Below are positions 3,045-59,750 of a stretch of DNA of 64,000 nt, one piece after another. A program made the translations under genes and the position numbers. The stretch is from Terebella lapidaria (Eukaryota; Annelida; Polychaeta; Terebellida; Terebellidae). Position 1 is the first letter of the stretch; each line of letters begins with the position of its first letter. Below the pieces are notes generated by a model. The model was not told where the DNA came from and ran no database searches. It saw only the letters and a list, made by a program, of their open reading frames with translations. The stretch is taken from positions 20,237,402 through 20,301,401 of the forward strand of contig OX424567.1 in the NCBI GenBank assembly GCA_949152475.1, read 5' to 3'.

Positions 3045-3642
3045 TATGGAAGCGTTAATTGATCATCCACTTAACCACATAATTTTTCACAATATGGCGT
3101 GTTGAGTATCACAGTAAGTTGCCTTATCGTGATAAATATCATGGCAAGTTGTCGTGTTGTGAAAAGTAGGAAAATCATTTTGACAAGACGTGTGACCATG
3201 AAAATTATCACAACAATGCATCTTACCGTGAAAAAATATCACGTCTATTACCGTGAAAATCAACATAAAAAAACGTTTTATCGTGTTAAATATAATGGTA
3301 AGTCAGCATAAATATCGTTATATTTTTTCACGTAGATGTCTTGTCATCATATTGTTTCACAGTAAGACTTGTTATTGTGATAGTTTTTCATATTAAGACG
3401 TCTTGTCGTTAAATTTTTTCAGAGTACCCGGTCAGACATTATATCGTTATATTTTTCACGATAAGACGTCTTGTCGTGATAAATATTCACAGTATGTCTC
3501 CTTGTCATTATAATTTAGGAGATGTTCATAACATGAGTACTTGCTATGATATTTAACATGACAAGACGTCTTATTGTGATACTGAACACGCCAGGTCGTG
3601 AAAAATTATGTGGTTAGGTGGATGATCAATTAACGCTTCCGT
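3045..3642. mobile_element. 598-bp MITE with about 40-bp terminal inverted repeats and 7-bp target duplication
   Basis: The left end GGAAGCGTTAATTGATCATC (3,048 on) is matched in reverse complement at the right end (to 3,640), and the inverted match continues for about 40 bp through AACCACATAATTTTTCAC. ACCAGAC stands on both sides (3,038-3,044 and 3,643-3,649) as target duplication. A 7-8 bp duplication would suit a hAT-type transposase, but the superfamily is not certain. The interior is filled with degenerate short repeats containing AAGACGTCTTGTCGTGATA. The element interrupts the decayed gene between its SDRA and RFNILF segments. Confidence 0.9.
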
Positions 3643-4115
3643 ACCAGACACATTATCTCAACCAGACTCACTATCTCACGCACAACAGGTTCAACATTCT
3701 ATTCCACAATGGTGGTGTAGCCTTCTACTTGCTTCAGGACCTCATGGGAGGTCATGTTTAGAATTCTTTGGGAAAGACTGTCCTGTATGATGCGATGGAG
3801 GTATGGTGCGTCGCCGGTAGCAAGGCGCTGGGTCTCATCAGCAAGTTCAACACTGCCCGCCTCTGGGGATACATCGAGAATAAGTCTTTGCACACTGCAG
3901 ACATCATTGCATCATATCAGTCCTTCATTGACTTCTTGAGGATGTGTCTCAACAATGGAGAGAATATGGTTTGCTTCACAAAGGGTTCCTTCTACCCATC
4001 ATGTTTTGGAACGAGCCCCGACAGTGATGACGATGGCATGAATACCCGGTGTTCAAGGTCCTGCAGTCAAGAATTCTGTACATCGATCTTGGAAGCTAAT
4101 TCCACAGATTGTATA

Positions 4116-4682
4116 TACTCGGATTTTTCTAACTCGTTTACACTGTTTTTCGCCAATATATTTGTGATGGTGAACGCTATCGTTTTATAACTTGGCATAC
4201 TTCACCTAGGAGTCAAACGGCAATTTTCTACCAAATTTCAGACAGCTGTCGCGAAAATTGAAAAAGTTGGTAATCTACCTCAATGTTAAATTTCAGCCCA
4301 AAACGGGATCTCGAGAATCTGAGCATTTTCGAGGAATTTGTCCTGTTTACATCCATCAGGATTCGAAATATTCTTGTAACTTTGAACCAGAAGAAACACT
4401 GGGATGTACTCAGTCAAACATGTTGATTTTGAAACATTACTCCGCTACAAAACCGAGCAAATGCACAAAATTTTGTGCGGGTCCAGAAATTAAATAATAG
4501 GGCTAAATTTACCATTGGGGTAGATTGCCAACTTTTTCAATTTTCGCGATAGCTGTCTGAAAGTTGGTAGAAAATTGCCGTTTGACTCCCAGGTGAAGCA
4601 TGCCAAGTTATAGAACGATAGCGTTAAGCATCACAAAAATATTAGCGAAAAACAGTGTAAACGAGTTAGAAAAATCCGAGTA
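4116..4682. mobile_element. 567-bp MITE with about 165-bp inverted repeats, TA target duplication
   Basis: Left arm 4,116-4,281 and right arm 4,517-4,682 are inverted copies with roughly ten differences. Both start TACTCGGATTTTTCTAACTC, and TA flanks each end (4,114-4,115 and 4,683-4,684). The interior of about 235 bp shows no conserved gene; the open frame at 4,258-4,497 lies mostly inside it and is not credited. A TA duplication with long inverted repeats suggests a Tc1/mariner-related or other TA-targeting MITE. It interrupts the decayed gene downstream of its ALGLISK segment. Confidence 0.9.
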
Positions 4683-5401
4683 TAGTGCTTCTTGACCATC
4701 TGGCAGGAGGGAAGTTTGAGAATATGGAAGAAGTCACAGTAACTGAGACCACCTTAGTTGTAAAGCACAACAAATTAGCGGGATAACTGTTTGGTAAGCT
4801 TAATTGGCTAATGCAGATGAGACCTGCAACATCCTGTCTTACCAATGAATCACACATTTTGCTCGCCAAGAACAGGACCCTGTTATGGCTGGAGGAAAAA
4901 TCCGAAGAAGAACAGGCCAAAATTCACAATCAAGAAAGCAAGCACAGCAGCTGAAAGTGAGGGCTAAGGAAGGATCGGAGGAAATAGCAAACAGACTATT
5001 GTTATCCTTGAAAGAAAGACAGGGAGAACTCGAGCGATTAAACCAAAGAGGGTTCAAAATTAAGAAGGATCTGACTAGAAAAGTCAGGATCCAATACAAA
5101 CAGAAGTAGCAAAGATTAAAAACAATAAGAAAAAAGTTGAAGCTGTGAAAACACAGATATTGTTCAGGGAAAAAGTGTTCCAATAGTCAGTCACAAACAT
5201 GCGAGTTTACAACTTCAGCAGCAAATTTGAAGGAAGTTTCTTCCTGCAGAAGTTGATTTAAAACTTGGATGAGCTGGTTTCTGCTGCGGGCAATGCGAGC
5301 GACAGTTCAACAGTTCGTTCTTAGTGGGTCGCGATGTCAGACACAGGTTAACCAACAATGGGCAGCCAACATGGTACAGAGGCTATATAATTTCAGGTAC
5401 C

Positions 5402-6730
5402 AGGGGCCTCTAATTCGATGGCGCCTTACGTAAGTATGTCTTATATCCTAAGACATACTTACACCGAAATCTTAGCTCAGTCACGTCTATAACTCGAAGC
5501 ACTCGTAACACACACTTGGGTAAGACCAACTTAAGACAATGTCATGTAGGTTAGGAAAATTGCAATGTCATGAAATATTTCTTTGATTCGCTTTTGACTC
5601 GCAGCATCAAGTGGAAATAATATGAAACTATTATCCCGCCGGCATATTGCAGCAGCTTCACTGTCTACATAGCGAGACGCAGACATGGAACTAAGACCAT
5701 GCACATCAGTATGCTTCTCACCATTGAGCTGTGGAGAGCTCTGATCGATAACTGGTGTAACTTGCATTGGTACGGACAATGCAATACAACGAGCAGTTGG
5801 CTTCTCCAAGTCATTTTTGAACATATTAAATACCGGTAGTTTGAAAATACTAAAGTCGATTTCAACACGAAAATTCGAATGATTTTTTGTCCATAAATGT
5901 ATTTTGCTTCAATTGTGATCCCTTTTCATTTGGCATAGAACCATATTATATTATTTCCAGAACATTTTATCTTCAAAACTGAAAGAAAAAAGGGTAAAAA
6001 TTGACGCTGTTAAATTTCACCTCAAACATTAACTTTGCTATTCTGAGCACAATTTGGCAAGTTAATGGATGTTTGAATTGTACAGTGCTTTGGCAAGAAG
6101 ATGTTTGATCAGAATACACTGGTAGTCTTCTATCATAAAAACCTAACAATTTGTACATCGCTCTTGGGCACAAACAAACATCACGAAATCCCTGAATTTG
6201 CTCGAATTCACGTGATCCCAATTGCGGCTGACACTTAACATTGCAGTAGATATTGCATTATTTTTATCCAGTTTTGAAGATAAAAGACCTTTGAAAATAT
6301 GGTTTTATATCAAGTAAAGATATACAAATTCAAATTGAACTGACGATCCAAATTAATGCTATGGCCAAAACAATTCGTAATTGTGTATTGAACTTAACTT
6401 TAGACATGTCCAACCTGTAGTTTTTTTTACTATTCAATGATCACCCTCGAGTCCAAAGGGTTCCTACTTGCGCGAAAATCCCTTTTTCGGAAAACGCCTT
6501 CGATTGTCACGTCGTTGCAATAAAATTATGTGAAACATTTGAGAGCAGAGCTCATTGCAAATTCAGCTAAGATGTTACACCACCTCCCAAGCTCCCTTAA
6601 GTTAAGATGAAAATATATATGACTTAAGATTGCGATCTCAGCTAAGACACTGTTGAGTTAGAGGGAGAAAATCTTAAGGTTGTCTTAAGTATTAACGTAG
6701 GGATAAGAGTGCTTTGAGTTAGAGGCCCCT
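5402..6730. mobile_element. 1.3-kb non-autonomous DNA transposon, AGGGGCCTCTAA ends, TACC target duplication
   Basis: The left end AGGGGCCTCTAATTC matches the reverse complement of the right end (GAGTTAGAGGCCCCT). Below the ends, both sides carry repeated CTTAAG and CTTAGCT(C/G)AG motifs, likely transposase-binding sites. The target duplication TACC is at 5,398-5,401 on the left. On the right it is 9,466-9,469, because a later element landed inside it. Two reverse-strand open frames (5,531-5,824 and 5,973-6,221) are not similar to any transposase I know. A 4-bp duplication occurs in Sola and Ginger among others, so the superfamily is left open. Confidence 0.8.
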
Positions 6731-6732
6731 TA

Positions 6733-9465
6733 GTCGGGCATGTACGGGGGGTCCCTTTGCACCCCCCCCATGATCCTCCAAAACCAACTTTTTTCTCAAG
6801 GTTTTTTAATACTAAAAAACATTACATATGTCTCCGGTTGCGCATCCATTGCAAAAATTGGTTTTCGGGCCATTTTTCAAAATGGCCGCCCCGCGAAATC
6901 TCGAATTTTGAGATTGCTTCACTTTAGGCTGCATAGGTCTACAAAATAAAATCTTTGTTACCTTTTGCTGCTTATTATAGGGGCCTGATACATTGTACAT
7001 GAGAAAACAGTGGTTAAATAAATACTTATAACATGAATATGTCCATAAATCCAACATGGCCGCCAAATTTAGACAGTTTTTCACTAAAATGTCCATAACT
7101 TCGGACTCAGTCAACCTAGGATGTTCATTTTGGGGTCTATACCTAGGTTTTCATATACAGGGAATCCATTTAGACCAAAATAAATACAATCAAGCTATTT
7201 CTTTCGATGCATGTACACCTGCACACATGGTACACGCTACATATTCATTTAGATATCTCTCGAACATAGCCCACTTGACACCCCTATGGTCTCAATTGTG
7301 GATCTTGCTTGGATATTTCTGATAGAGACTTTTACTGATTTGCAATCCCAATAAATCCTTGAACAAATGGAGCTTGATTTGGTTAGTTTTGTTAATTAAC
7401 ATAAACCCAAGATGCCTGCTAAAAACACCCCGAAAATTCAAGTTCGTAACTAATTGTGCTATAAAGATGTGTGATACTTACTTTTAAGGGTATTTTGGTA
7501 TGTAGATTCCATTTTTGGTGTTATTCTAGCCATATAATATCAATCTAAAATGATAACAGCATCTCATTGAGATGGAAAGCAAATAAGAACACAATGTTAT
7601 TCGAATTTATTCATACACTTATGAATTACACGTTACTCACAAACATGCTTGGGATACATTTTATATCACAAACAGAGAACAATAATATAGATATCTTCAT
7701 TGGCAATCTTTACACATGAACATGATGGAACATGAAACTATGATATTGGTACTGCTATGTTGGATGAATTGACATATCTTCACCATTGCCCTGCATTCTC
7801 TTGTAGTACAACAACGTTGTCTTGAGCTGTCCGACATCATACCCCTCAACATCCTCTATCTCCTCAGTTCTGGAAAATTCTGCATCACTTTCATCACAAC
7901 AGTCTCATTCATTGATCTAGCTTAGACACACCTTCAGGTTGCCACTCTCCTGGGGCTGAACAGTTGTAATGCAAGTGCATAACTGGTGTGTCCAGTGACA
8001 ACTATAAGTACACCCATTCGAACAACAATTCGTCAAATTCATATGGGAAAGATGTCATGCAATAGCTGAGAGGGTGCATACTAAATAGCTAGAGGCACTT
8101 TGATCCTAGTTCAGCACACGTTGCTTTTATATAAAAGCAATGATCCGTCGCATCCTTCCATACATGCATTGCAGCTCTGCCAGACACAAGCAACTCAACA
8201 TCCTCTCCATATGCCAACATACAAGAAATTTGGACAGCATTCAGCTGATCTACTCACATCAGCAGATCAACTGAAACAATTGCTTGTTTGGCTGGGATAT
8301 TATACATGTAGATGACAGCTCAGTTCATGCTGTTGCCAAAAGTGACCCAGCCCCTTCAAGGCTCAGTGATGTCATCCAGTGTCAATGAAAGATAGTCAGA
8401 AAAATTGTAGTACCAAGGGATGTATTGAGTAGTTGTCACTGGACACACCAGTGATGCACTTGTACAGCAACTGTTCTGCTCCAGGAGAGTGTGGCAACCC
8501 ATACACGAAGATGTGTCTAAGCTAGATCAATGAATGAGACTGTTGTGACAAAAGTGATGTAGAATTTTCCAGAACTGAGGAGAATTCGAATATTCGAATA
8601 ACAATGTGTTCTTATTTGCTTTCCATCTCAATGAGATGCTGTTATCATTTTAAATTGATATTATATAGCTAGAATAACACCAAAAATGGAATCTACATAC
8701 CAAAATACCCTTAAAAGTAAGTATCACACATCTTTATAGCACAGTTAGTTACGAACTTGAATTTTCGGAGTGTTTTTAGCAGGCATCTTGGATTTATGTT
8801 AATTAACAAAACTAACCAAATCAAGCTCTATTTGTTCAAGGATTTATTGGGATTGCAAATCAGTAAAAGTCTCTATCAGAAATATCCAAGCAAGATCCAC
8901 AATTGAGACCATAGGGGTGTCAAGGGGGCTATGTTCGAGAGATATCTAAATGAATATGTAGCGTGTACCATGTGTGCAGGTGTACATGCATCGAAAGAAA
9001 TAGCTTGATTGTATTTATTTTGGTCTAAATGGATTCCCTGTATATGAAAACCTAGGTATAGACCCCAAAATGAACATCCTAGGTTGACTGAGTCCGAAGT
9101 TATGGACATTTTAGTGAAAAACTGTCTAAATTTGGCGGCCATGTTGGATTTATGGACATATTCATGTTATAAGTATTTATTTAACCACTGTTTTCTCATG
9201 TACAATGTATCAGGCCCCTATAATAAGCAGCAAAAGGTAACAAAGATTTTATTTTGTAGACCTATGCAGCCTAAAGTGAAGCAATCTCAAAATTCGAGAT
9301 TTCGCGGGGCGGCCATTTTGAAAAATGGCCCGAAAACCAATTTTTGCAATGGATGCGCAACCGGAGACATATGTAATGTTTTTTAGTATTAAAAAACCTT
9401 GAGAAAAAAGTTGGTTTTGGAGGATCATGGGGGGGGTGCAAAGGGACCCCCCGTACATGCCCGAC
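6733..9465. mobile_element. 2.7-kb palindromic fold-back element, TA target duplication
   Basis: The two halves are inverted copies: left arm 6,733 to about 8,010, right arm about 8,430-9,465. The outer 590 bp differ at about one base, as shown by identical mirrored 100-residue and 69-residue frames and an 88-residue pair with one change (H/P). The ends read GTCGGGCATGTACGGGG, with TA at 6,731-6,732 and 9,466-9,467. The left arm has about 250 bp (7,605-7,855) missing from the right arm. No transposase is visible; the mirrored frames are a by-product of the palindrome. CAAAATGGCCGCC and AACATGGCCGCC motifs recur. The ends resemble those of the element at 22,723-27,007. Confidence 0.9.
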
Positions 9466-9607
9466 TACCTGGCTTCCCAGATTGGTACAATATGGTCTAT
9501 GATGAAGACCCTGCTGTTTATACGTACAAACTGATGGAAGATTTTAATGCCGGGGACATGGAGTTGTTGCCACAAGAGCAGAATCAGGAGGAAAAATCAG
9601 ATCAAAG

Positions 9608-22453: not shown

Positions 22454-22722
22454 ACTCCACAAATGTCTGAAAAATCGAAGTCATTTTGTTTCAAATATGT
22501 GTCAGTTACGGAATCATTTCATGATCTGTACTTTGAGTTACCGAATCAAGACAAGTCAGTTACCGAATCCTCGCCGATTTTTATAAAGAGCCATATCAGT
22601 GAATTGACACATGGGACCCGGCAGAATCTCACCCGATTTCGTTCAAATACGACATATGAGTAAATACTGACCAAAAACGAGCGCTAATATACGTTTTAAA
22701 TGCAATAACACACAATTTAATA

Positions 22723-25700
22723 GTCCATGAGCACAGGTGGTCCACCGTGCACCCCTCCCCCCAGGACTCTCCGCGAGGGGTGTCATTTTGTTCAGGGGGC
22801 CCTTGAGCTTCAGAATCCACTTGTTAACACTCGATATCCTGGGATGAACTATCCAATATGGCGGCTTTTCAAAATGGCCGCCATCAAAACCGAGACATTT
22901 CTTGAAACACAAATTTGTATTTTTCTTCGCCCCTAATTGTGCTAGAGACATGATTTTGGTACCTAAACATATGTTTTAGAGGTCAAGGAATGCAATAAAA
23001 ATATTTTCAACTACTTCAGCCCATCCCTTCAGCATGAAATCCAAGATGGCGGCCATCAGAATCGCATATTTTGTCATATTTTTTCTAAAACTTTAATATT
23101 CTGAGGAACTCTGTGGCCATTATTTACAATTATGTGCCCTAATACATGCTATTGGTACTTGATAACATTAATGGCAAAAATAACAATGTCCCCAATGCCC
23201 TAATTGCTGAAAAATGCATTGAATTTGGCAATAAACACAATCACGGCGAAACCGAATTCGATCAACAATAAACTTAAAGTTGTATATATCTTTGCCCCTA
23301 ATTGTGCTAGAGACACAAAGTTAGTACCTAAACATATGTTTTAAATAGCAAGGAATGCAATAAAAATATTTTCAACTACTTCAGCATACCCGTTCTGCAT
23401 GAAATCCAAGATGGCGACCATCAGAATCGCATATTTTGTCATATTTTTTTTCTAAAACTTTAATATTTTAAGGAACTCTGTGGAAATTATCAACAATTTT
23501 GTGTCTTAATACATGCTGATGGTGCTTAATAACATCAATGGCAAAAATAACAATGTCCCCAATGCGCTAATTGCTGAAAAATGCGTTGAATTTGGCAATA
23601 AACACAATCGCGGCGAAACCGAATTCGATCAACAATAAACTTGAAGTTGTATATATCTTTGCCCCTAATTGTGCTAGAGACACAAACTTGGTACCCAAAC
23701 TTATGTTTTAGAGGTCAAGGAATGCAATAAAAATGTTTTCAACTACTTTAGCATAGCGCTTCGGCTTGAAATCCAAGATGGCGTCCATCATAATTGCATA
23801 TTTTTTCCTATTTTGTTCATGAAACTTTAATATTTTAAACAAATGTGTGGTCATTATCACCAATTATGTGCTCCAATACATGCTGTTGGTACTCAAAAAC
23901 ATCAGTAGTAGAACTAACAATGTCCCCTATGCCTCAATTGCTCAAGAATATGTTGACTTTAGCAATAAACACAATCGCGACAAGGCCGAAATTGACCAAT
24001 GATAAGCACAAAATTGCATACATGTACATATCTTTTACCCTAATGGGGTACCTGCTGATGCCATGTGCTTTTGGGGCTCTGAAATAGTCTATTATGCCTA
24101 AAAGGTACAAAAAACGTCCTGTCCATTGTCTGCATTATGTGAAAAACAAACACGACAAAATTTCAATGCAACATTATTACGTTTTTGTATTATATGGCAC
24201 AGTAGACTGTTTCTATGGTTTATCTATACCCGAATTACATGGTGGCGATCCTGGTGGCAAACAGGAACCTCATTGTGCGAAATTTTGTACCTAAGCATAT
24301 GTGTTAGAGTTTAGGAAATGCAATAATATTGTTTTCAACTACTTTAGCATAGTCCATTAGCATGAAATCCAAGGTGGCAGCCACCAGAATGGCATATTTT
24401 ATCATATTTTTTTTTCTAAAACTCCAATATTTTAAAACAATTGTGTAGCCATTATCACCAATTTTGTGCCTTAATTACATGCTGATGGTGCTTAATAACA
24501 CCAGTGGTTAAAATAACAATGTCCCAAATGCCTCAATTGCTAAAAGATATATTGAAATTGACAATAAACACAATTGCAGCAATATTGAATTAGATCACAA
24601 TCAACAGTTAAAGTCATGTAATGTGCATAAACGAGACGTTAAATGTCATTAAGTTACCGGTAGTTCATTTATCTGAAATATAAACATGTACATGTACATT
24701 ACAAAAGCCATTCCCAACATGCAAAGCATTCATCATGGGGGAAATCCAAGATGGTTTTGCATATTTTTCTTGGTTTTGCAGCTATTTTGCATAGCTGAAC
24801 GAAGATAATGTACTCTCTTCACCGATATTTGGTCTAGAATTTGGTTTATCCTTACATTTCCATGTATGTAGATTTCAAATATATATGTACTTAATTTGGC
24901 ATGAAATGAACTACTCCTCTTGCAAAAGAACATATAAGGTCGAAATGGTTCTATGGAATGCCAAATCCAGGTAAATTACATTGTAATATTCCAGCGAATG
25001 TTTGTTTTAGAATGATGTCTAATATGTCCATAGATAAGTTTTCACACATGCAGGATATAACGACACACATGTATTGGCAAAAAAGAAAATCTTTATCACT
25101 GTTTCAGAACTCAGGTTTACAACATCAAGTCATCCACAATCATTCAGTTCACACCATTGAGTCATCAGTAGTCGATCAGTCAATAAATGTGAATCATCAC
25201 TCCGGTAAGAACATAATTTCTCCAACATCTACTCTCATATCAAAACTACCGTAAGTAATCTTTTACCACATACCACTGAATATGTTGTTATCTGAACAGT
25301 TGCTGAAAACTGGTAACATCGTTGAGTAAAATAAATGTACATATATGCAATTTTGTGCTTATCATTGATCAATTTCGGCCTTGTCGCGATTTTGTTTATT
25401 GCTAAAGTCAACATATTCTTGAGCAATTGAGGCATTGGGGACATTGTTATTTTAACCACTGGTGTTATTAAGCACCATCAGCATTTAATTAAGGCACAAA
25501 ATTGGTGATAATGGCTACACATTTGTTTTAAAATATTGGAGTTTTAGAAAAAAAATATGATAAAATATGCCATTCTGGTGGCTGCCATCTTGGATTTCAT
25601 GCTAATGGACTATGCTAAAGTAGTTGAAAACAATATTATTGCATTTCCTAAACTCTAACACATATGTTTAGGTACAAAAGTTCGCACAATTAGGGTAAAA

Positions 25701-27007
25701 GATATGTACATATATGCAATTTTGTGCTTATCATTGATCAATTTCGGCCTTGTCGCGATTTTGTTTATTGCTAAAGTCAACATATTCTTGAGCAATTGAG
25801 GCATAGGGGACATTGTTAGTTCTACTACTGATGTTTTTAAGTACCAGCAGCATGTATTGGAGCACATAATTGGTGATAATGACCACACATTTGTTTAAAA
25901 TATTAAAGTTTCATGAACAAAATATGAAAAAATATGCAATTATGATGGACGCCACCTTGGATTTCAAGCCGAAGCGCTATGCTAAAGTAGTTGAAAACAA
26001 TTTCATTGCATTCCTTGACCTCTAAAACAGTTTAGGTACCAAGTTTGTGTCTCTAGCACAATTAGGGGCAAAGATATATACAACTTTAAGTTTATTGTTG
26101 ATCGAATTCGGTTCGCCTCGATTGTGTTTATTGCCAAATTCAACGCATTTTTCAGCAATTAGGGCATTGGGGACATTGTTGTTTTTGCCATTGATGTTAT
26201 CAAGTACCAATAGCATGTATTAAGACACAAACTTGTTGATAATTTCCACAGAGTTCGTTAAAATATTAAAGTTTTAGAAAAAAAATATGACAAAATATGC
26301 GATTCTGGTGGTCGCCATCTTGGATTTCATGCAGAACGGGTATGCTGAAGTAGTTGAAATCATTTTTATTGCAATCCTTGCTATTTAAAACATATGTTTA
26401 GGTACTAACTTTGTGTCTCTAGCACAATTAGGGGCAAAGATATATACAACTTTAAGTTTATTGTTGATCGAATTCGGTTTCGCCGCGATTGTGTTTATTG
26501 CTAAATTCAACGCATTTTTCAGCAATTAGGGCATTGGGGACATTGTTGTTTTTGCCATTGATGTTATCAAGTACCAATAGCATGTATTAGGGCACATAAT
26601 TGTAAATAATGGCCACAGAGTTCCTCAGAATATTAAAGTTTTAGAAAAAATATGACAAAATATGCGATTCTGATGGCCGCCATCTTGGATTTCATGCTGA
26701 AGGGATGGGCTGAAGTAGTTGAAAATATTTTTATTGCATTCCTCGACCTCTGAAACATATGTTTAGGTTCCAAAATCGTGTCTCTAGCACAATTAGGGGC
26801 GAAGAAAAATACAAATTTGTGTTTCAAGAAATGTCTCGGTTTTGATGGCGGCCATTTTGAAAAGCCGCCATATTGGATAGTTCATCCCAGGATATCGAGT
26901 GTTAACAAGTGGATTCTGAAGCTCAAGGGCCCCCTGAACAAAATGACACCCCTCTCGGAGAGTCCTGGGGGGGGGGGGTGCACGGTGGACCCCCTGGGCT
27001 CATGGGC
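22723..27007. mobile_element. 4.3-kb palindromic fold-back element with tandem-repeat arms, TA target duplication
   Basis: Left arm about 22,723-24,650, right arm about 25,260-27,007, inverted and about 98 per cent identical in the outer part. The ends read G(T/C)CCATGAGC, with TA at 22,721-22,722 and 27,008-27,009. After about 320 bp of unique end sequence, each arm consists of four tandem units of about 365 bp, each containing CCAAGATGGC(G)GCCA-like sequence (23,041, 23,406, 23,773, 24,369; reversed at 25,581, 25,951, 26,311, 26,676). A loop of about 600 bp separates the arms. No transposase is visible. The end sequences share GGTCC..NTGCACCCC with the palindrome at 6,733-9,465, so both belong to one group. 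Confidence 0.9.
24045..24271. mobile_element. 227-bp MITE inside the left arm of the palindrome
   Basis: The right arm reads CCCTAATTGTGCG without interruption at the mirrored position (about 25,690). The left arm reads CCTAAT, then this segment, then ATTGTGCG. AT is duplicated. The ends GGGGTACCTGCTGATGCCA and (reverse) GAGGTTCCTGTTTGCCACC form an imperfect inverted repeat. The insertion happened after the two arms had formed. Confidence 0.65.
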
Positions 27008-27063
27008 TATAAATATACACACACGCCACGTCCATTCTGGAAATGAAGTTACTGAATCGTGTG

Positions 27064-38477: not shown

Positions 38478-39488
38478 AATAAACGCAGTACTTATGTACT
38501 TGTCATATATCTGTTTCTTGGGGTTTGTTTCGGATTTCTAAATTATTTTCATAAGTTGTTGGGCAGTTGTATACTAATTCCATCAGGTGTACAGTAGAAA
38601 CAACTATATTTAACACACTGTCTGCCCCTGATGACGCCAGTGTGTCTTTGGATAAACTATTTGGTCGGGCTTTGTTTCTATTGCAAAATGTTGTATTTTA
38701 CGTTTGTTATTGGCATCATCAAAATCTGACTGTATTGGTGGTAACAGATTGATACTTACATTCATACCACTGAGTCGGTGTCACTGCTGGCGGACGTTAA
38801 ATCTGTCCCCGAGGATACCATCAACTCAGTAGCCTTCGGGCTTGTGATTAGGTACTTATGTACTTGTCATATATCTGTTTCTTGGGGTTTGTTTCGGATT
38901 TCTAAATTATTTTCATAAGTTGTTGGGCAGTTGTATACTAATTCCATCAGGTGTACAGTAGAAACAACTATATTTAACACATTGTCTGCCCCTGATGACG
39001 CCAGTGTGTCTTTGGATAAACTATTTGGTCGGGCTTTGTTTCTATTGCAAAATGTTGTATTTTACGTTTGTTATTGCCATCATCAAAATCTGACTGTATT
39101 GGTGGTAACAGATTGATACTTACATTCATACCACTGAGTCGGTGTCACTGCTGGCGGACGTTAAATCTGTCCCCGAGGATACCATCAACTCAGTAGCCTT
39201 CGGGCTTGTGATTAGGTACTTATGTACTTGTCATATATCTGTTTCTTGGGGTTTGTTTCGGATTTCTAAATTATTTTCATAAGTTGTTGGGCAGCTGTAT
39301 ACTAATTCCATCAGGTGTACAGTAGAAACAACTATATTTAACACACTGTCTGCCCCTGATGGCGCCAGTGTGTCTTTGGATAAACTATTTGGTCGGGCTT
39401 TGTTTCTATTGCAAAATGTTGTATTTTACGTTTGTTATTGGCATCATCAAAATCTGACTGTATTGGTGGTAACAGATTGATACTTACA
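38478..39488 (+). mobile_element. R1 cassette A-B-A-B-A, period exactly 364 bp, with target duplication
   Basis: Unit starts at 38,490, 38,854 and 39,218. Each unit is about 272 bp of A (ACTTATGTACTTGTCATATA ... TTGATACTTACATT) and 92 bp of B (CATACCACTGAGTCGG ... GGGCTTGTGATTAGGT). The last copy stops after A. TTCCAA stands at both ends (38,472-38,477 and 39,489-39,494). The left arm of the inverted duplication shows the empty site near 17,836 (reverse: GCTTTTCAAGAATAAG). So this cassette moved as a unit. No terminal inverted repeats or protein are seen; whether it is SINE-, Helitron- or otherwise derived is unknown. Confidence 0.8.
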
Positions 39489-40013
39489 TTCCAAGAACAA
39501 GAATCCCATAACCAAACAATTTGGTCATTAAGTAGGTTTGTCCACAGTGACTGGACTCCGCCTTTTTATGCAATTACAACATTGTTTTTTTCTGCGTCAG
39601 ACCATTTTTTATATATTTCCGGTCTGATTATGTTATTAAACGTCTAGTGGATCCCGATTTTGACTGCCAAACTTTGTCCGTTAGTGTATTGTTATGAGTA
39701 TGCGTAGTGTCTACACTAACACCACGTTTGTTCCGCTATTCTGCACTCTGTCACCACCTCAAATACACAACCACTCTCTCCTCGTAACGGTTATGATCTT
39801 ATTGACACTACACTCTTCACATTCACGTTACAATCTGAATTTTTAACAGGGAACAATTTCAAAGATGGCACAACGGATATCTGTTTTGTGTATGCGTTTT
39901 TACTCAGTATCTTATCTTGAGTCAATGTTTTACTCAGGGTCAGGATAATACAATTAATCTTGCGTAAAATGTTTCAAAGAATGTGATAGTAATGTTCCAA
40001 TATGACTCGAAAT

Positions 40014-58140: not shown

Positions 58141-59750
58141 TCAATAGTATTGAATTAGTATTTGAACATTTATACTGCGCTTTACCAAAACTTTGCTCAA
58201 AGCGCATAACAATAGAATTAGATACAAAACTACATAAAATCAATTACAAAATAACATGGTTTTAACAGCCGACTTGAATTGACGGATTGAACACAGAGTC
58301 TCAATTGGGAGCGGGAGACTGTTCCATACATGGGGGCCAGCAAAACTGAGGGCCCTATCTCCTACGGATTTCAGTCTTGTTCTAGGACCAACATATAAGT
58401 TCTGTTAACTGGAGCGCAAGGCCCGAGATGATGTTTGAGGCGTAAACAGAGATGAGAGGTATCCGGGTCCATTGGTGATGAAGCAGAAGAAGAGCAGGGC
58501 AGTTTTGAAAACAACCCTGTCTTGTATGGGAAGCCAATGGAGCTCCCGGATTACTGGTGTGACAGGGTCTCTGCGGGGAACCTTGGACACAATCCGAGCA
58601 GCCGTATTTTGGAGCAACTGTATGCGTCGGATCTGGGATGATGGCAATCCGTAAAGGAGTGAGTTGCCGTAGTCAAAACAGCTAGTGACCAGCTGATTGA
58701 TCAGTGTCTTGACCGAGTGAACGTCAAGATATGGACGCATCCTGCCTATCTTGCGCATGGAGAACATTGCCATTTTGCCTACATGGGATACTTGCTGAGT
58801 CATGTTCAAAGACGAATCCAGATGAACTCCTAGATTGCGGACAACCGAGGATTGCTGTCCACCAACGCCTATATTTGTGTATATCTGAGGGGTGACATGA
58901 AATATACAGCTGAATATCGTCTGCATACATATGAAATTGAAGCCCATGATGCCGGATGATTTGTCCGAGTGGCATGACATACAGTGTATATAAGATGGGA
59001 CCCAAAATGTAGCCCTGAGGAACTCCACACGATAAGGAACGTGGTTGTGAAACATCTCCACCAATCATTACACTCTGTGAGCGACCGGAAAGATAGCTGG
59101 GAAACCACTGGAGCACTCTTAAACGTAGACAGCAAGACTTGATGATCAACAGTGTCAACGGCACTGGACAAATCTAGCAGCACCATCAGTGATACCTGTT
59201 TGCTGTAGTCATGAGAAGATCATTGTAAACAGAGCCGTTTCCGTGCTGCATCTAGGGCGATAGGCGGATTGGAGAGGCTCATGGCAGTTAGTGCTCATGA
59301 GGTGTTGGCGCAGTTGATGTAGCACTACTTTCTGCAACACCTTAGAGACAAAATTAAGGTTCGACACTGGCGTGTAATTCTGGAGATCATTTGGATTCAG
59401 ACCCGGTTTCTTCAGGAGCGGGCGTACGATGGCCTTTCTGAAATCGTCAGGCACAGTTCCAGTCCTGAGTGAGGAGTTAACGATTTGCGTCAACAGTGGT
59501 GCGAGCGAGCCGAGGGTGTCCTTGACGAGCCAGGTCGAGGCCGGGTCAAGAGCACAGTGTTTAGTGGACATGGATCCGACGACTTTGATAATGTGTGATT
59601 GAGATACAGGGCTGAATTCCTCAAGCTTTGGCTGCTCATTTTCAGTTTGGTCCTCTGACATGGCATTCGAGAACATTTGTCTAATATTACTGATCTTTCT
59701 GGCGGAGTAGGAAGAAAACTCGATTGTGTATTATATGTAGGGAGGGCGTG
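58141..59750 (-). mobile_element. Broken CR1/L2-type LINE
   Basis: On the reverse strand the RT text runs in order: LDPASTWLVKDTLGSLAPLL, TGTVPDDFRKAIVRPLLKKP, PLQSAYRPRCSTETALF, VLLDLSSAVDTVDHQ, GVPQGYILGPILYTLYV, the catalytic YADDIQLYIS, NLGVHLDSSLNMTQQVSHVG and DYGNSLLYGLPSSQIRRIQL. The order and wording are those of CR1/L2 elements. It is 5'-truncated near 59,750, needs at least two frame changes, and lacks part of the region between YADD and NLGV. The 3' end has the GCGCTTTGAGCA ... AAAGCGC stem typical of L2. Not active. Confidence 0.85.

What the first reader, a model, noticed from the sequence alone, without database searches (positions are those of the whole stretch)
22723..27007. 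Palindromic element whose arms are built of 365-bp tandem units
Each arm holds four units of about 365 bp, mirrored in the other arm, plus a constant end of about 320 bp and a 600-bp loop. So the element combines fold-back and tandem-repeat design. Its ends share TAG(T/C)C...GGTCC...TGCACCCC with the palindrome at 6.7 kb, so a family of such elements exists here.
Basis: partly seen in the sequence, partly recalled or inferred. Interest (0 to 1): 0.7.

Follow-up and report, generated by a model that had tools for sequence, protein, structure and literature searches.

The report
Palindromic transposon with tandem-repeat arms
This is one copy of a family of jumping DNA elements built as almost perfect mirror images, and comparison of copies suggests that the two mirror halves keep overwriting each other while a small centre is left to drift apart.

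Summary
Window 22721-27009 is a foldback DNA transposon: each arm is a 184-bp end plus four ~365-bp units, flanked by TAA. The 32-bp end occurs 240 times in this 761.6-Mb genome; the end motif shared with the 6.7-kb palindrome occurs 586 times, reversed pattern 0. Of 17 scorable copies, 12 have exact 3-bp target-site duplications, against 19 of 272 cross-pairings.

The '600-bp loop' is misleading. Eleven of 12 near-full-length copies are 4.63-4.75 kb, with ~2.3-kb arms and a short centre; the window copy lost one inner arm segment. In those 12 copies the innermost ~500 columns form two arm types shared across subfamilies, while the outer 1.5 kb groups by subfamily, both arms together. So an old palindrome has had its outer arms homogenised repeatedly.

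The likely mobiliser is an AcademX-type transposon: elements here with open frames of ~1,500 codons end TAGT...ACTA, have 3-bp duplications and carry an XPG/FEN-like nuclease domain. That link is inferred; no autonomous element with identical ends was found.

The parts
22718..22720 (.). left target-site duplication TAA
22721..22904 (+). left terminal domain (END, 184 bp), starts TAGTCCATGAGC
22905..23270 (+). left unit 1 (~365 bp)
23270..23637 (+). left unit 2
23644..23976 (+). left unit 3 (aligned part)
24039..24275 (+). 237-bp stretch between units 3 and 4, found only in this copy among the 20 regions
24282..24601 (+). left unit 4 (partial)
24615..25325 (+). centre, 711 bp; in full-length copies this inner domain is present in both orientations (types p and q); one is missing here
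25365..25679 (-). right unit 4
25734..26087 (-). right unit 3
26093..26453 (-). right unit 2
26459..26824 (-). right unit 1
26825..27009 (-). right terminal domain (END), ends GCTCATGGGCTA
27010..27012 (.). right target-site duplication TAA
6731..9467 (.). related foldback element of a second family (B), ends TAGTCGGGCATG, duplication CCT at 6728-6730 and 9468-9470; a shortened copy of a ~2.98-kb element

Best explanation
The feature is a non-autonomous cut-and-paste DNA transposon of the foldback type. It moves when a transposase made elsewhere in the genome binds its TAGTCC...GGACTA ends and inserts it with a 3-bp duplication. The likely transposase source is a group of AcademX-like elements with the same TAGT...ACTA termini, 3-bp duplications and an XPG/FEN-family nuclease domain. 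The palindrome arose once, before the present subfamilies split. Since then the outer ~1.5-1.9 kb of the two arms have been kept nearly identical within copies by arm-to-arm exchange (gene conversion or crossing-over), which stops where the two inner arm types have diverged. Shown: anatomy, ends, duplications, end count, concerted outer arms, two-type centre shared across subfamilies. Inferred: the source of transposase, and conversion as the exchange mechanism.
Against: No autonomous element with TAGTC ends was found; the three whose two ends I found share only TAGT and 3-bp TSDs with family A and, for L053 alone, a 21-bp motif whose hits are individually insignificant (E 0.16 and worse); the shorter core AAGATGGC is absent from L054 and L055. 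The transposase catalytic region could not be confirmed (model pLDDT 42; Pfam gave only DUF6589 at E 0.0057 for L055, below its curated cut-off). Five of 17 copies lack an exact TSD. L015 has non-matching flanks (CAT/ATA), so its arm exchange may be an ectopic crossover rather than conversion. Families C and D do not show the clean decline: their outermost 100 columns (0.71 and 0.85) are less alike than the next ones, and their arms are more diverged throughout. The copies compared were best hits to the window copy, not a random sample. The p/q labels were taken from the inner region itself.
Confidence: 0.75

Rival explanations
1. Each subfamily made its palindrome anew (repeated hairpin- or template-switch-type inverted duplication), so the arms are similar because each palindrome is young, with no arm-to-arm exchange.
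For: Outer arms of a copy are 95-100% identical per 250-column window over the first 1,750 columns.
Against: The inner arm types p and q are shared across the subfamilies in 12 of 12 copies, which a new palindrome per subfamily would not give; breakpoints between shared and arm-specific states are visible in L015, L016 and L027.
Confidence: 0.08
2. The outer arms are similar only because selection keeps transposase-binding sequence constant.
For: The terminal 300 columns are the most conserved also between subfamilies (0.97-0.99); tandem units have been proposed to hold secondary transposase-binding sites (passages of PMC3573991; section of PMC4079207).
Against: From column 400 to 1300 the two arms of a copy are on average 98.7-99.6% identical per 100 columns while subfamilies differ by 4-9%; pure selection would hold both comparisons alike.
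Confidence: 0.07
3. Mobilised by another superfamily with 3-bp duplications (Zator, PIF/Harbinger, CACTA/EnSpm or a Tc4/Tc5-like element).
For: 3-bp TSDs fit several superfamilies (passages of PMC10045372 and PMC12730594); Tc4 of C. elegans is a foldback with 3-bp duplications (recalled).
Against: Ends are TAGTC, not CAC (EnSpm rule); TSDs include TTC, CTG, ATT, CAA, not only TWA or TNA (recalled Harbinger and Tc4 rules); the Zator-like probe PF07592 found nothing, which is uninformative because its controls were silent too.
Confidence: 0.2
4. Assembly or sequencing artefact (palindromic chimeric reads).
For: Palindromes are a known long-read artefact (recalled); L011 shows a duplicated right end with the same flank, which may be an assembly error.
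Against: 240 near-identical ends across the genome, exact TSDs in 12 of 17 copies, and arms that differ in fixed ways.
Confidence: 0.02

Closest known systems
Tetris (Drosophila virilis)
   Same: Foldback; long inverted repeats made of a flanking domain, ~220-bp tandem units and an inner domain; apparently non-autonomous (abstract and two sections of PMC4079207)
   Different: 8-9 bp TSDs; variable unit number; its units also form satellite-like arrays. Here 3-bp TSDs and four units in each of 24 full-length arms; I saw no long array among the places listed, which scored 40 of 323 candidates
Galileo (P superfamily, Drosophila)
   Same: Long inverted repeats with internal tandem repeats; 98-100% identity between repeats of one copy; chimeric copies without matching TSD (passages of PMC3573991)
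   Different: 7-bp TSD and P-type transposase; here 3-bp TSD, TAGT ends, and an inner two-type centre that escaped homogenisation
AcademX lineage of the Academ superfamily
   Same: 3-4 bp TSDs and a nuclease-encoding autonomous form (passage of PMC10045372); here autonomous relatives have 3-bp TSDs and an XPG/FEN-like domain
   Different: I found no coding sequence in the foldbacks of family A and no autonomous copy with their exact ends
Tc4/Tc5 of C. elegans (recalled)
   Same: Near-complete palindrome, 3-bp duplication (recalled)
   Different: TNA target rule and pogo-like transposase (recalled); TSDs here do not follow TNA

Membership tests
[quoted passage not shown]
foldback (FB-like) DNA transposons, descriptive class | multi-copy with defined ends and target-site duplication | tested here: met
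   240 ends; 12 of 17 copies with exact 3-bp TSD
AcademX (non-autonomous member) | 3-4 bp TSDs | tested here: met
   for family A; for the three autonomous relatives with both ends found; definition from the passage
AcademX (non-autonomous member) | autonomous partner encodes transposase with XPG-type nuclease | tested here: inconclusive
   nuclease fold matched in the TAGT-ended elements; DDE part not confirmed; that Academ nucleases are XPG-like is recalled; partnership with family A not shown
AcademX (non-autonomous member) | shares terminal inverted repeats with an autonomous member | tested here: inconclusive
   TAGT...ACTA shared, plus a 21-bp subterminal motif with L053 at E 0.16 or worse; no identical ends found
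Zator | ISAzo13/TP36-like transposase in the partner element | tested here: inconclusive
   PF07592 found nothing here nor in the 14 control genomes
CACTA/EnSpm | CAC...GTG termini | tested here: not met
   17 of 17 copies with both ends start TAGTC and end CTA; rule from the passage
Galileo / P superfamily | 7-8 bp TSD | tested here: not met
   7-bp and 8-bp matches 0 of 17

The most novel reading that the evidence does not exclude
The mobilising transposon family supplies its own junction nuclease: the XPG/FEN/GEN1-like domain of the AcademX-like protein cuts cruciforms extruded by the long palindrome and so drives arm-to-arm conversion. This would keep the two terminal binding sites identical, and a diverged centre would be retained because a perfect palindrome would be destroyed. 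The foldback form would then be the favoured parasite of a nuclease-bearing transposase rather than a decay product.
Probability: 0.12. Interest if true: 0.75.

Novelty: new variant of a known kind. Interest (0 to 1): 0.5.

Why it matters
Long palindromes are unstable (recalled), yet by end count this one has spread to roughly 120 sites (240 ends, if ends are paired). The copies act as replicate natural experiments on palindrome maintenance: outer arms evolve in concert, as described for Y-chromosome palindromes (recalled), and a short diverged centre is present in 12 of 12 near-full-length copies (copies chosen for being near full length). If the AcademX link holds, it adds foldbacks to a superfamily whose transposase carries a structure-specific nuclease domain.

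Tried and rejected
Pfam scan of ten short frames in L023, L025 and L029 found nothing. PF07592 as a Zator probe found nothing and its controls were silent too. Family D (TAGTCCAG ends; beside a truncated family A copy in L025, TSD TGA; alone in L045, TSD GTA) looked like the coding partner because of a 177-aa frame with 155 matches in the genome (list cut). It turned out to be another decayed foldback, and its frame matches the autonomous proteins only at E 0.16 or worse. Two neighbouring frames in L025 read to me as retrotransposon pieces (recalled; the one I scanned had no Pfam match). A fold model of the putative catalytic region was too poor to search. phmmer of L055 against PDB gave four matches, best E 0.011, none meaningful. 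Satellite arrays of the unit: I saw no long array among the listed places, but one search scored 40 of 323 candidates and its list is cut, so arrays are not excluded. The TAGT...ACTA search over the window found only family B; 1 match in 20 shuffles, 0 in the reversed window; it missed the window's family A copy because that copy's right end reads GCTA. Papers sought and not held. My paper searches listed no paper that by title or start of abstract describes this family; I looked inside seven papers, by abstract, passages or single sections only.

Rows dropped: of the 20 regions fetched, TSDs were scored in 17 (L023 and L025 have one end, L028 lacks its last bases) and arms compared in 12 (dropped: L010, the window copy with deleted centre; L018-L022, internally deleted; L023, L025). 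L011 was bounded at its outer right end for TSDs and at its inner right end for arms; both are followed by the same flank. The p/q labels came from the inner region itself, so the clustering of arm-type columns there is partly by construction; their absence from the outer part is not.

Full report
Observation. The window lies on contig C14 of a 761.6-Mb genome in 438 contigs, by size a eukaryote. Between 22721 and 27009 lies a palindrome: TAGTCCATGAGC... to ...GCTCATGGGCTA, flanked by TAA on both sides. Outer arms of 866 nt are 97% complementary. Each arm consists of a 184-bp end followed by four ~365-bp units (TRF counts 2.9 and 4.0 units). The left arm of this copy carries a 237-bp stretch between units 3 and 4 that does not occur in the other regions.

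What the loop is. In the longer copies the 711-bp centre occurs twice, in opposite orientation, mostly with about 50 bp between the two. Eleven of the 12 near-full-length copies are 4.63-4.75 kb, almost complete palindromes with ~2.3-kb arms; L027 is 5.55 kb because about 900 bp of other sequence sits in its centre. The window copy lost one of the two inner segments. The shorter copies L018-L022 (2.2-3.3 kb) also lack inner segments.

Family and mobility. The 32-bp end occurs 240 times within 3 mismatches, against 0 for the backwards pattern. Of 17 copies with both ends, 12 have an exact 3-bp duplication (TTC, TAA, CTG, ATT, ATA, CTA, AAA, CAA, TAT); when left and right flanks of different copies are paired, 19 of 272 match. 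The palindrome at 6731-9467 is a second family (B) with ends TAGTCGGGCATG and duplication CCT; copies run to ~2.98 kb. One pattern for both ends gives 586 matches, reversed control 0. Two further foldback families turned up: C, nested in the family A copy L029 (1978-5744, duplication TTA), and D, beside a truncated family A copy in L025 (duplication TGA) and alone in L045 (duplication GTA). A profile of family A units finds C (best E 3.2e-6) and D (best E 2.1e-4), on both strands of the element in each case, while the best reversed control is 3.9. Family B matches the same profile positions only at E 2 and worse.

How the arms evolve. I aligned 24 arms of 12 near-full-length copies. Averaged over the copies, the two arms of a copy are about 99% identical per 100 columns over the first 1.3 kb and 96-98% from there to column 2000, then fall to 0.86-0.91, 0.78 and 0.44 towards the centre. 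The tree of the inner part separates 12 arms of one type (p) from 12 of the other (q), one of each per copy, across the subfamilies. The tree of the outer part instead places both arms of L009 and L024 together, both arms of L011 and L012 together, and both arms of the other eight copies together. Of 29 alignment columns fixed by arm type none lies before column 1750; of 55 columns fixed by subfamily (2 against 8 copies) none lies at or after column 2000. The simplest history is one palindrome, formed before the subfamilies split, whose outer arms have since been overwritten repeatedly. Individual boundaries can be seen: in L015 one arm carries the other arm's state at 14 of 14 diagnostic sites up to column 1921 and its own at 61 of 61 from column 2016; in L016 the arms agree at 21 of 21 sites up to column 1921 and then differ at 72 of 74; in L027 they agree at 12 of 12 up to column 1544 and then differ at 79 of 83. 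L016 and L027 have intact duplications; L015 does not, so in L015 an ectopic crossover between two copies is as good an account as conversion. Family B (L030 and the window copy) shows a decline from 1.00 at the ends to 0.96-0.99 and then to an unrelated centre. Families C and D do not show it so cleanly: their outermost 100 columns are 0.71 and 0.85 alike, less than the next ones, and their arms are more diverged throughout.

Known or new. Foldback transposons with tandem units in their repeats are known (Tetris, abstract and two sections read; Galileo, passages), and the Galileo paper already reports 98-100% identity between the repeats of one copy and chimeric copies without TSD. New here, as far as my searches show, are the TAGT...ACTA 3-bp class of foldbacks in a genome rich in nuclease-bearing TAGT elements, and the sharp contrast between homogenised outer arms and a two-type centre kept across subfamilies. 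I call it a new variant of a known kind.

Noticed in passing
38488-39491: Tandem array of 364-bp units, 2.8 copies, 99% matches; similar period to the foldback unit but its printed consensus looks different.
   Followed up: no
4114-4684 and 3045-3643: Two shorter inverted-repeat pairs (180 nt at 93%, 162 nt at 77%) that look like other terminal-inverted-repeat elements.
   Followed up: partly
58405-59676: Broken reverse-transcriptase frames on the minus strand (RVT_1 matches in two of the frames), a retrotransposon remnant.
   Followed up: partly
L011 5244-6632: The right end of a family A copy is followed by a second right end; both are followed by the same flank beginning ctgtccttgatg: local duplication or assembly error.
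   Followed up: no
L029 1978-5744: A foldback of family C inserted inside a foldback of family A: nested palindromes.
   Followed up: partly
L023 from about 2400: A family A arm that stops 153 bp into the inner domain, with no right end in the next 4.5 kb.
   Followed up: partly
L014, L015, L022, L024, L026: Family A copies without matching 3-bp duplications, possible products of ectopic exchange and so possible rearrangement breakpoints.
   Followed up: no
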